Below are positions 13,899-16,056 of a stretch of 64,000 nucleotides of DNA, piece by piece. The position numbers and the translations under genes were made by a program. Under the pieces are notes generated by a model. It was not told the origin of the DNA, made no database searches, and saw only the letters and a program-made list of their open reading frames with translations. Source of the DNA: Actinomycetota bacterium (GTDB taxonomy: Bacteria > Actinomycetota > Actinomycetes > S36-B12 > FW305-bin1); assembly GCA_004297305.1 (NCBI GenBank), contig SCTR01000006.1:132129-196128 (forward strand), in the 5' to 3' direction. Each line of letters starts with the position of its first letter. Positions within the stretch are counted from its first letter, which is position 1.

Positions 13899-14008
13899 GG
13901 TGCTGCCTTTGTTCGAACGTGTGGGAATCGTGCTGGTGCGATGACCTGCTGTGCCGAGTGACGCCGCCAGCCGGGCCATCGCTGGCCGGCGCGACACAAC
14001 GACCGGTC

Positions 14009-14038
14009 AGGCTACCGGCGGCCCGGTACGACGGTCAA
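14009..14038 (-). promoter_or_regulatory. rplM–rpsI promoter (TTGACC–18 bp–TAGCCT)
   Basis: On the minus strand the -35 hexamer TTGACC (14033–14038) and -10 hexamer TAGCCT (14009–14014) are separated by 18 bp. The same hexamers precede rpsL and rplJ in this window. Transcription would start near 14001. Confidence 0.75.
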
Positions 14039-14048
14039 AACGGCGTCC

Positions 14049-14156
14049 AGCAGGACCCGGCGCCGCGGTGCTGGCCGGTCAGGCTGGCGGTCGGCCAAGG
14101 TCCCGACCGGTCAGGCTGGCCGGCGGCCAGGCCCCGACCGGTCAGGCCATGGGTCA
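14049..14156. repeat. Left direct repeat flanking the NYN gene
   Basis: Positions 14049–14115 match 15026–15092 at 65 of 67 bases. After a 31-bp extra unit, the 10 bp at 14147–14156 match 15093–15102, which include the truA stop codon. The core CCGGTCAGG recurs several times inside the repeat and also occurs at the rplM transcription start region. Confidence 0.9.
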
Positions 14157-14186
14157 GCCGAGGGCGGGGACACGGAGGGGCCCGAT

Positions 14187-14200
14187 GTGACTCGGGTCAC
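14187..14200. promoter_or_regulatory. CRP-like palindrome
   Basis: GTGACTCGGGTCAC is a perfect 5-bp inverted repeat with a 4-bp centre. It matches the loose GTG-N6-GNCAC pattern described for Streptomyces Crp sites. It lies ~110 bp upstream of the NYN gene start and ~150 bp upstream of the rplM promoter. Regulator and target are unproven. Confidence 0.4.
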
Positions 14201-14308
14201 GTCGTGGCCGTTGCGTGGGGTGGGCGAGGGTTGTACGTTCGTCAGTAGTTGCGGCCCGGTCTTCCCCCTCGGGGGTGCCGGGCCAACATCTTGCGGGGGG
14301 CGCTTCGA

Positions 14309-14962
14309 GTGATCAGGGTCGGCGTCTATATCGACTACAGCAACGTCTACTCGGGTGCACGTGACGCATTCGTTCTGACCGGGCAACCCGGACATCGAGG
14401 AAACGTAAATCCCCTATATCTCGCGAAGTGTGTTGCTTTGAATGCGCCGGACGGCACCAAGCGCTCAGACACACACTCGCTCGAGTTTACGAAGGTATTC
14501 AGAGGTGCGCCCGACCCACGGAAGGAACCGAAGGCGGCGCTGATGGAGGCCAAGCGCGCGGCGAATTGGGAACGTTGGGGTGCACAGGTTTACCGCCAGA
14601 CCCTCGACTACGGACAGGGCCGCCCCGTCGAAAAGGGCGTCGATGTCCGGCTCGCAACGACACTAACCATGGACGCCATTAAGAGGGCCATGGACCTAGC
14701 GGTTCTAGTGTCGGCGGACAAGGACTTCAGATACGCCCTGATCAATGTCCGCGACCTGCAGCAGGTGGAGCTTGAGGTGGCGATATGGCAGGCAGTACCG
14801 GGCGGAAGCGCTATCGGACGCATCGAACTTCGGCCGGAACGTCCCATGGAGCCAGAGGTACCCTGCCATCTCCTGACCAGGAGTGATTTCAGTCGCCTCG
14901 AAGACACGGTCGACTACCGCCGGCAGCCTACGCCTCCCGGGTGGAATGCGCCGACAAGCTAG
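14309..14962 (+). CDS. NYN-domain (PIN-like) predicted nuclease
   Basis: 217-residue protein of the NYN/DUF88 (LabA-like) family, predicted metal-dependent RNases of the PIN/FEN fold. Candidate acidic active-site residues are Asp9 and Asn12 in VYIDYSN, Asp112 in KGVDVRLA, and Asp137/Asp139 in VSADKDF. Start GTG 14309 has a run of G 8 nt upstream. It is the only plus-strand gene between 13 kb and 50 kb. It uses codons such as CTA, TAT, TGT, GTT and AAT more freely than its neighbours, suggesting recent acquisition. No partner gene, toxin–antitoxin mate or transposase is next to it. Near-identical direct repeats flank it. The target and role are unknown. Confidence 0.85.
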   Translation: MIRVGVYIDYSNVYSGARDAFVLTGQPGHRGNVNPLYLAKCVALNAPDGTKRSDTHSLEFTKVFRGAPDPRKEPKAALMEAKRAANWERWGAQVYRQTLDYGQGRPVEKGVDVRLATTLTMDAIKRAMDLAVLVSADKDFRYALINVRDLQQVELEVAIWQAVPGGSAIGRIELRPERPMEPEVPCHLLTRSDFSRLEDTVDYRRQPTPPGWNAPTS

Positions 14963-15025
14963 ACAAGGCCTCCAACGGCCTCCCTGGGGAAGCAGGAGCA
15001 TCACTTCAAGCTGATCCACGCCTCA

Positions 15026-15102
15026 AGCAGGACCCGGCGCCGCGGTGCCGGCCGGTCAGGCTGGCGGTCGGCCAAGGTCCCGGCCGGTCAGGCCATGGGT
15101 CA
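15026..15102. repeat. Right direct repeat flanking the NYN gene
   Basis: Counterpart of the left repeat: 67 bp at 65/67 identity, then 10 bp shared, but without the 31-bp internal unit of the left copy. Its last three bases are the truA stop codon, so the repeat abuts or slightly overlaps the truA end. Confidence 0.9.
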
Positions 15103-16056
15103 CGCTGGCGGGCGCGGCCGGGGCAGTACGTTCCCGGCCGTTGAGCGCACCGCGCGGGTGACCTGCTGCCGGGCGGCCAGGGCGTCGTCCGGCGGATACC
15201 GGACCTCCTCGAGCACCAGACCGTGCGCCGGTACGACGGTCACGGCCGGGTCGCGGACCCCCGCGGCCAGCACGGCCGCCGGCCACGACACCGGCCGCCG
15301 GCCGTCCCCGACCGCCAGCAGCGCGCCGACCAGTGCCCGGACCATGCTGTGGCAGAACGCATCCGCCTCGACCTCGATGGCCACCAGACCGGCCGCGTCC
15401 CGACGGCACGACAGGGCCAGCAGGGCCCGGACGGTCGACGCACCGGGCCGGCGACGGCAGAACGCGGCGAAGTCGTGCTCGCCCAGCAGCGCGGTGGCGG
15501 CCTGCTGCATGGCGGACGGATCCAGCCGCCTCGGGTACGCCAGCACCCAGCTGCGCGCCAGCGGATCCCGTCCGGCGGGGTCGTCGCCCACCCGGTAGAC
15601 GTAGCGCCGGGAGCTGGCGCTGAAGCGAGCGTCGAAGCCGGTCGGCGCCAGGTCGACTCCGCGCACCGCGACGTCCGGCGGCAGCAGCGCGTCGAGCCGG
15701 CGCCGCAGCACCGGCAGCGCCAGGTCTGCATCCCCGGTCGGCTCCGGCACCAGGTCGCCGGTCCGGCGGCGGCCGGCCAGGCCGCGCAGCGCCGGCTCGG
15801 GAAGGTCGACGTGGATCACCTGGCCCCGCGCGTGGACACCCGCGTCGGTCCGTCCGGCACAGACCACCGGGTGGGGCAGCGTCAGCCGCAGGACCGTGGC
15901 CAGGGCGTCTTCGACGACCCCCTGGACCGTCGGCAGACCGGGCTGGGCGGCCCAGCCGGCGTACGCGGTGCCGTCGTACGCCAGCTGCATCCGAACGCGC
16001 CGAAGCCCGCCCCGATCGGGGGCGGGCTTCGGCGGCGATGACGGGACAGCTGCCAC
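15100..16056 (-). CDS. truA: tRNA pseudouridine(38–40) synthase
   Basis: Up to 318 residues; modifies the anticodon stem of many tRNAs. The catalytic Asp is in GRTDAGVHA (Asp71 counted from GTG 16056). MQLAYDGTAYAGWA, RRYVYRV and FCHSMVRALVG are family blocks. The start is uncertain: GTG 16056 lies 5 bp after the rplQ stop but has a poor binding site, and a perfect 13-bp hairpin covers codons ~9–19. ATG 15990, just past the hairpin, would keep the whole catalytic domain. truA after rplQ is the normal bacterial order. Confidence 0.93.
   Translation of the reverse strand: MAAVPSSPPKPAPDRGGLRRVRMQLAYDGTAYAGWAAQPGLPTVQGVVEDALATVLRLTLPHPVVCAGRTDAGVHARGQVIHVDLPEPALRGLAGRRRTGDLVPEPTGDADLALPVLRRRLDALLPPDVAVRGVDLAPTGFDARFSASSRRYVYRVGDDPAGRDPLARSWVLAYPRRLDPSAMQQAATALLGEHDFAAFCRRRPGASTVRALLALSCRRDAAGLVAIEVEADAFCHSMVRALVGALLAVGDGRRPVSWPAAVLAAGVRDPAVTVVPAHGLVLEEVRYPPDDALAARQQVTRAVRSTAGNVLPRPRPPA
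16001..16031 (-). terminator. Perfect 13-bp hairpin after rplQ, inside the truA start region
   Basis: Arms 16001–16013 and 16019–16031 pair perfectly (CGAAGCCCGCCCC with its complement) around the loop GATCG. It lies 30 bp past the rplQ stop. There is no U tract, as is common in actinobacterial terminators. It could end the rpsM–rplQ transcript or attenuate truA. Confidence 0.5.

What the first reader, a model, noticed from the sequence alone, without database searches (positions are those of the whole stretch)
14049..15102. NYN-domain gene inserted between truA and rplM, bounded by near-identical direct repeats
The sequence shows one plus-strand gene of less GC-rich codon use in a 37-kb minus-strand block. 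It is bounded by direct repeats (14049–14156 and 15026–15102; 65/67 identical, plus 10 shared bp). Its protein has the NYN/PIN acidic residues (Asp9, Asn12, Asp112, Asp137, Asp139). The truA–rplM junction is normally tight in actinobacteria. The right repeat includes the truA stop, as if the junction was duplicated when the ~870-bp segment arrived. This is the strongest candidate here for an undescribed mobile or defence-like single-gene cassette. Family membership is established knowledge; mobility and function are inference.
Basis: partly seen in the sequence, partly recalled or inferred. Interest (0 to 1): 0.7.

Follow-up and report, generated by a model that had tools for sequence, protein, structure and literature searches.

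The report
NYN nuclease paired with hairpin RNA
The odd gene between truA and rplM encodes an RNA-cutting-type (NYN) protein whose relatives in many bacterial phyla, plasmids and prophages almost always sit behind a tiny, strongly conserved RNA hairpin, which looks like an undescribed RNA-antidote/protein-toxin pair, although the copy in this genome is an outlier with its own diverged hairpin.

Summary
In detail: a foreign-looking plus-strand NYN gene (14309-14962, GC 60.6% against 70.5% for the window) lies between truA and rplM, flanked by near-identical repeats found only there. 'Normally tight' is wrong: this junction carries different genes in many same-order genomes. Mobility of the cassette itself is unproven.

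The main result is new. Homologues in Actinomycetota, Chloroflexota, Planctomycetota, Myxococcota, Alphaproteobacteria and others, on plasmids and prophages too, nearly all have the same ~40-nt unit just upstream: a promoter, then within ~6 nt of the predicted RNA 5' end a hairpin with a bulged U, then a U-rich tract. Eight of 11 pairs show compensatory changes; Rfam has no match. In 390 genomes, 25 of 30 hairpin hits inspected precede an NYN gene or relic. Complete units also occur downstream of, or divergent from, the gene, in tandem, and in phages without NYN, often near tRNA genes. That argues for a trans-acting RNA rather than a pure attenuator.

Best reading: a type III/AbiF-like toxin-antitoxin pair with an NYN nuclease. 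The window copy keeps promoter spacing, catalytic residues and a stable hairpin, but of diverged sequence with a poor U-tract. Neutralisation, toxicity and tRNA target are inferred.

The parts
14309..14962 (+). NYN ribonuclease gene (217 aa, GTG start); proposed toxin/effector
   Evidence: catalytic residues invariant; NYN fold
14253..14284 (+). stable leader hairpin GGCCCGG...CCGGGCC at the position where homologues carry the conserved hairpin; diverged sequence, weak U-tract after it
   Evidence: (z -3.4); not matched by model R1
14211..14216 (+). putative -35 TTGCGT
14234..14239 (+). putative -10 TACGTT, 17-nt spacer, 13 nt before the hairpin as in homologues
14049..14157 (.). left direct repeat (with one extra ~31-bp unit)
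15026..15103 (.). right direct repeat, overlapping the truA stop

Best explanation
The gene belongs to a widespread two-part system: a ~40-nt terminated hairpin RNA and an NYN ribonuclease. Shown by sequence: a promoter is followed, about six nucleotides after the predicted start, by a conserved bulged hairpin and a U-rich tract, then a ribosome site and the NYN gene. Inferred: most transcripts stop at the hairpin and give an abundant short RNA; a few read through and make the NYN protein. The hairpin RNA binds the NYN protein and keeps it inactive, as RNA antitoxins do in type III and AbiF systems. When the RNA supply falls, for example when a phage shuts off or degrades host transcripts, the nuclease is freed and cuts RNA (tRNA is the likeliest target), stopping the infected cell. 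Phages carry copies of the hairpin without the nuclease as decoys. The window copy is a divergent member that keeps promoter spacing, catalytic residues and a stable hairpin in the same place; its RNA partner has diverged along with the protein.
For: Hairpin directly before the gene in nearly all homologues over several phyla. Covariation: 97.3% of cells paired, 8 of 11 pairs changed on both sides, 49 cells, 0/500 shuffles, slid controls 30-59% paired; the variant hairpin of the mainly alphaproteobacterial clade also covaries. Specificity: of 44 model hits in 390 actinobacterial genomes, 22 of the 30 loci inspected have an NYN HMM match beside the hairpin and 3 more have a visible NYN 5' relic; 6 of 6 blastn hits of the hairpin in plasmids are NYN leaders. 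Other NYN-like loci (L005, L173-L176) lack it. Trans action: L077 has no leader but a full promoter-hairpin unit just downstream of the gene; L096 has it on the opposite strand with no gene behind it; L138, L062 and L090 have two units in tandem. Phage copies without NYN: 26 contigs for the real motif (1 has NYN), 0 for a pair-permuted and 0 for a bulge-less hairpin. About 8 of 17 independent phage lineages have a tRNA gene within ~750 bp of the hairpin. Hairpin type follows the protein tree: the 5'-loop type is one clade, support 99. Precedents: RCd22/AbiF is co-transcribed, mostly terminated, and active in cis and trans (PMC12373285); phage pseudo-ToxI decoys (PMC3475682).
Against: No toxicity, binding or neutralisation data. 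The window's own hairpin does not match the family model and lacks a good U-tract, and its protein is on a long branch (1.83 against a median of 0.33), so this copy may have lost or changed its RNA partner. Displaced hairpin units are few (L077, L096, L239). Tandem units can be remnants of a duplicated gene: in L062 an NYN 5' remnant follows the first unit. Phage hairpins may simply be terminators of tRNA operons. The RNA could also activate or guide the enzyme rather than inhibit it. Few neighbours are known defence genes and there is no conserved partner gene.
Confidence: 0.55

Rival explanations
1. Cis attenuator only: the hairpin is a regulated or autoregulated terminator in the NYN mRNA leader, which the NYN protein or another factor controls; no free RNA acts on the protein.
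For: Hairpin plus U-rich tract sits between promoter and gene in most members.
Against: L077 and L096 keep the unit outside the mRNA leader, L138 and L090 have two units in tandem, and phages carry it alone.
Confidence: 0.2
2. Guide or cofactor RNA: the hairpin RNA and the NYN protein form an active ribonucleoprotein that targets other RNA, so the RNA switches the enzyme on or directs it.
For: Conserved bulged, internal-loop RNA that tracks the protein tree; also fits the displaced units.
Against: No variable guide segment is seen; intact hairpins next to ruined NYN genes and hairpins alone in phages fit an antidote better.
Confidence: 0.12
3. Phage-transcription trap: the promoter-proximal terminator imitates a phage leader, so that a phage antiterminator reads through it and switches on the NYN effector.
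For: Some phages have a promoter-like sequence and the same hairpin right before phage genes (L178, L182).
Against: Many phage copies are at the ends of tRNA arrays rather than in leaders; does not explain L077 and L096.
Confidence: 0.08
4. For the window alone: an isolated horizontally acquired NYN gene whose hairpin is an ordinary terminator-like structure and which no longer has an RNA partner.
For: R1 finds no hairpin in the window or genome; long branch; weak U-tract.
Against: Promoter spacing, hairpin position and all catalytic residues are kept.
Confidence: 0.35

Closest known systems
AbiF / RCd22 (abiF RNA motif, Rfam RF03085), PMC12373285
   Same: Promoter, short structured RNA, terminator, then toxin gene; RNA made in excess by termination; RNA active in cis and trans; prophage-borne
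   Different: AbiF belongs to the Abi_2/AbiD/F family linked to Cas13 ancestors; its RNA is ~100-130 nt with two motifs and a separate terminator. Here the protein is NYN and one ~40-nt hairpin is both motif and terminator
Type III toxin-antitoxin families ToxIN, CptIN, TenpIN (PMC5086642)
   Same: RNA unit plus Rho-independent terminator before an endoribonuclease gene on one promoter; found on plasmids and chromosomes
   Different: Those have tandem repeats folding as pseudoknots and a ToxN-type toxin; here a bulged hairpin, usually single, and an NYN/PIN-type fold
PADLOC HEC-09 (candidate defence family)
   Same: 68 of 72 homologues match it
   Different: Partial weak match (window: residues 108-152, E 1.7e-7); no held paper describes an RNA partner; the one paper found lists it only in a correlation (PMC12447246)
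Phage pseudo-ToxI decoy of phiTE (PMC3475682)
   Same: Phage-borne copy of an RNA antitoxin without the toxin
   Different: Decoy role of the hairpins found here is inferred only
Other NYN nucleases (MARF1; CRISPR-associated NYN, PMC11346440; LabA/DUF88)
   Same: Fold and acidic active site
   Different: No hairpin-leader partner known; the other NYN-like loci tested lack it

Membership tests
NYN domain family (PF01936) | Pfam gathering score and acidic catalytic set | tested here: met
   29.8 bits against 24.2; D9, N12, E108, D112, D137, D139 invariant; NYN folds nearest
Type III toxin-antitoxin (ToxIN/CptIN/TenpIN) | ToxN-type toxin fold | tested here: not met
   Predicted fold is NYN/PIN-like with a Pfam NYN match above cut-off
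Type III toxin-antitoxin (ToxIN/CptIN/TenpIN) | Antitoxin RNA as a tandem repeat array upstream of the toxin | tested here: not met
   Usually one hairpin, two in L138, L062 and L090
Type III toxin-antitoxin (ToxIN/CptIN/TenpIN) | Promoter, RNA unit and Rho-independent terminator before the toxin gene | tested here: met
   Met by sequence for the family. For the window copy the U-tract is weak, so inconclusive there
Type III toxin-antitoxin (ToxIN/CptIN/TenpIN) | RNA neutralises a toxic endoribonuclease by binding it | not testable with these tools
   Needs expression and binding assays
Hairpin-leader NYN family described here (RNA model R1) | Match of the window's leader to the covariance model | tested here: not met
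   No match in the window or genome; only position, promoter spacing and fold stability agree
Hairpin-leader NYN family described here (protein alignment A6) | Protein homology and invariant residues | tested here: met
   24-37% identity, all invariant residues kept; profile E 1.7e-66, window included in the profile
PADLOC HEC-09 | Match over the whole profile | tested here: inconclusive
   Only profile positions 103-147 of 203 matched
Mobile element / transposable cassette | Own recombinase, or an empty site with one repeat copy in a close relative | tested here: inconclusive
   No recombinase ORF between the repeats; no close genome held
AbiF-type system | AbiF-family protein and abiF RNA motif | tested here: not met
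   NYN protein; no Rfam match at E <= 1 in eight homologue loci

The most novel reading that the evidence does not exclude
An undescribed class of RNA-protein toxin-antitoxin defence, present in several phyla, in which one ~40-nt bulged terminator hairpin is the whole antitoxin of an NYN tRNase, and phages answer with decoy hairpins carried next to their tRNA genes.
Probability: 0.35. Interest if true: 0.88.

Novelty: new variant of a known kind. Interest (0 to 1): 0.74.

Why it matters
RNA antitoxins that inhibit protein toxins are known for few toxin folds (ToxN-type and AbiF among those met here). A conserved hairpin paired with an NYN nuclease in several phyla would add a new toxin fold, give a very small antitoxin RNA, and explain a candidate defence family (HEC-09) that has only a label. 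The hairpins near phage tRNA genes would tie phage tRNAs and RNA decoys to one tRNase-like defence, and two-plasmid assays would test this directly. AbiF-type RNA-protein pairs have structural links to Cas13 ancestors, so a parallel NYN pair bears on how RNA-controlled nucleases arise.

Tried and rejected
Genome-wide repeat as insertion marker: rejected, the flanking repeat occurs only twice; the GACCGGTCAGGC core is not a dispersed element.

Rfam family for the leader: none at E <= 1 in eight homologue loci.

truA remnant inside the cassette next to the left repeat: no convincing frame.

Conserved partner gene or defence island: 130 neighbours show no recurrent family.

Chance phage terminators: permuted and bulge-less controls gave 0 hits.

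Window leader as a member of R1: rejected by sequence.

Single-protein search of GTDB contigs found nothing; the profile search worked.

An early reading that some loci (L152-L154, L156, L160-L162) lack hairpins was an artefact of minus-strand loci and was corrected by the model search.

Papers: no held paper joins NYN with a leader hairpin or a type III system. bioRxiv is not held, so preprints on the HEC candidates could not be read.

Full report
What is in the window. A 217-aa open frame with a GTG start (14309-14962, plus strand) lies between rplM and truA, both on the minus strand. It is a genuine NYN protein: Pfam PF01936 at E 1e-6, above the curated cut-off. It is the least GC-rich 650-bp stretch of the 64-kb window (60.6% against a mean of 70.5%; GC3 69% against 88-96% in neighbours). 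Direct repeats flank it (14049-14157 and 15026-15103); their core is 65/67 identical, and the left copy has one extra ~31-bp unit. In the whole genome this repeat occurs only at these two sites.

Junction and mobility. Among same-order genomes it is tight in some (L012, L024, L032, L036) but holds a carbamate kinase, an ABC-F ATPase or other genes in others (the gene names are my reading of the translations). Only this genome is held in its genus, so an empty site could not be examined. The NYN gene is patchy: 6 of 195 relatives at E <= 0.001, of which L002, L003 and L004 are clear, and 31 of 395 genomes of the class with a profile at E <= 1e-8. Homologues sit on actinobacterial plasmids and on viral contigs, some near contig ends. 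The family moves horizontally. That this cassette is itself a mobile element is not shown.

The protein. Across 72 homologues D9, N12, E108, K109, G110, D112, D137 and D139 are invariant, the acidic set expected of NYN nucleases. AlphaFold2 gives pLDDT 89.8. The nearest solved structures are 2qip (Z 15.8) and the MARF1 NYN domains (Z 13). 68 of 72 members match PADLOC's candidate family HEC-09. The window protein sits on the longest end branch of the tree (1.83 against a median of 0.33).

The hairpin. Printing the DNA upstream of homologues revealed one recurring element: a promoter, then TTGC/TAGC-type leader bases, then CCCC[G/A]CC-GUCC-loop-GGAC-U-GG[C/U]GGGG and a U-rich tract, then a ribosome site and the gene. 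In an alignment of 74 leaders 97.3% of cells pair and 8 of 11 pairs have changes on both sides (49 cells). No shuffle of 500 reaches this, and slid controls pair only 30-59%. The -10 element ends 12-14 nt before the stem in 61 of 87 leaders, against a flat distribution in shuffled sequence, so the RNA is predicted to begin about six nucleotides before the hairpin. Rfam has no match in eight homologue loci. A clade of mainly alphaproteobacterial proteins has a variant with the asymmetric loop on the other strand; it also covaries, and its proteins form one clade with support 99.

Specificity. A covariance model (R1) was run over 390 genomes of the class: 44 hits in 36 genomes. Of the 30 loci fetched, 22 have an NYN HMM match next to the hairpin, three more (L224, L226, L240) have visible NYN 5' relics, and five show no clear NYN. 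A blastn search of the hairpin in 72,556 plasmid records gave six hits, all NYN leaders. Five loci of other NYN-like proteins (L005, L173-L176) have no hairpin. Many of the scanned leaders were also in the training set, so upstream hit counts within the homologue set are partly circular; the plasmid, relic and genome-wide results are less so.

Why a trans-acting RNA. In L077 the NYN gene has no leader hairpin, but a complete unit (TTGACC-17-TATATT, hairpin, U-rich tail) lies directly after the gene. In L096 the unit is on the opposite strand upstream, with no gene behind it. L138, L062 and L090 have two units in tandem, and L239 has one before and one after the gene. In several genomes a perfect hairpin stands before a ruined NYN gene. 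Phages carry the hairpin without NYN: 26 IMG/VR contigs for the exact motif, only one with NYN, against none for a pair-permuted hairpin and none for one lacking the bulged U. The phage copies match R1 with 30-68 bits, most above 48. Annotated phages include Gordonia GAL1 and Holliday, Microbacterium Footloose and Hortus1, Clavibacter CN1A, Mycobacterium Krypton555 (weaker) and prophiGD102-1. About 8 of 17 independent phage lineages, by my grouping, have a tRNA gene within ~750 bp of the hairpin. A pure cis attenuator does not explain these facts; an RNA antitoxin with phage decoys does. The decoy role and the tRNA target are inference, resting on the pseudo-ToxI precedent (PMC3475682) and on phage tRNAs countering tRNA-cutting defences (PMC10264068 and PMC11555353, seen as titles and abstract openings).

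The window's own leader. It has TTGCGT-17-TACGTT, then 13 nt, then a stable hairpin (14253-14284; z -3.4, 0 of 200 shuffles as stable), then the gene. R1 does not find it. Its 3:1 internal loop on the 5' side resembles the topology of the alphaproteobacterial variant rather than the actinobacterial one. The U-tract is poor (aacatctt). The hairpin has therefore diverged together with a fast-evolving protein, or the RNA partner is being lost; the data do not decide.

How it probably works. Inferred by analogy with AbiF/RCd22, where one promoter feeds a mostly terminated RNA that binds and neutralises the toxin in cis and trans (PMC12373285): the hairpin RNA is made in excess and holds the NYN nuclease inactive. 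Loss of RNA supply during infection frees it. Fold and residues support a nuclease; toxicity, target and neutralisation are untested. It is not a classical type III system (PMC5086642): the fold is not ToxN-like and there is no repeat array, although anatomy and logic are the same.

Limits. The GTDB scan kept 80 of 191 homologues. No transcript data were available. Preprints are not held, so prior description elsewhere cannot be excluded; no held paper that I found links NYN proteins to such an RNA.

Noticed in passing
L007-L036 (same-order genomes, truA downstream): The truA-rplM junction is a variable site in this order: tight in some genomes, elsewhere holding a carbamate kinase, an ABC-F ATPase, a transporter-like gene or others.
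   Followed up: partly
L177, L179, L181, L196, L198, L203, L204, L208: Phage copies of the hairpin lie in or next to tRNA genes or arrays (one array of 33 tRNAs) without any NYN gene.
   Followed up: partly
L178, L182, L186: In other phages a promoter-like sequence plus the same hairpin stands before a 103-aa protein or a glycosyltransferase-like gene.
   Followed up: partly
L003 1501-2070; L212; genome G180: NYN gene with an in-frame TAG exactly at the conserved Gln of the DYQN motif, otherwise open, with a perfect hairpin leader.
   Followed up: no
L218, L221, L223-L228, L236, L240: Genomes mostly of one family (f23) carry hairpin units of which many are followed only by NYN relics, some genomes with two units.
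   Followed up: partly
L114-L118, L129, L135, L143 (alignment A4): In the alphaproteobacterial leader variant the asymmetric GG-ACUU-GG loop is on the 5' strand, the mirror of GGACUGG on the 3' strand in actinobacteria.
   Followed up: partly
L057 (Dietzia plasmid pI): The NYN gene neighbours an EcoRI-family adenine methyltransferase, a DUF262 protein and a Shedu-family nuclease, a small defence cluster.
   Followed up: no
window 14000-14157 and 15049-15099: Six short copies of CCGGTCAGGC, spaced ~31-32 bp within each cluster, form the repeats around the gene.
   Followed up: partly
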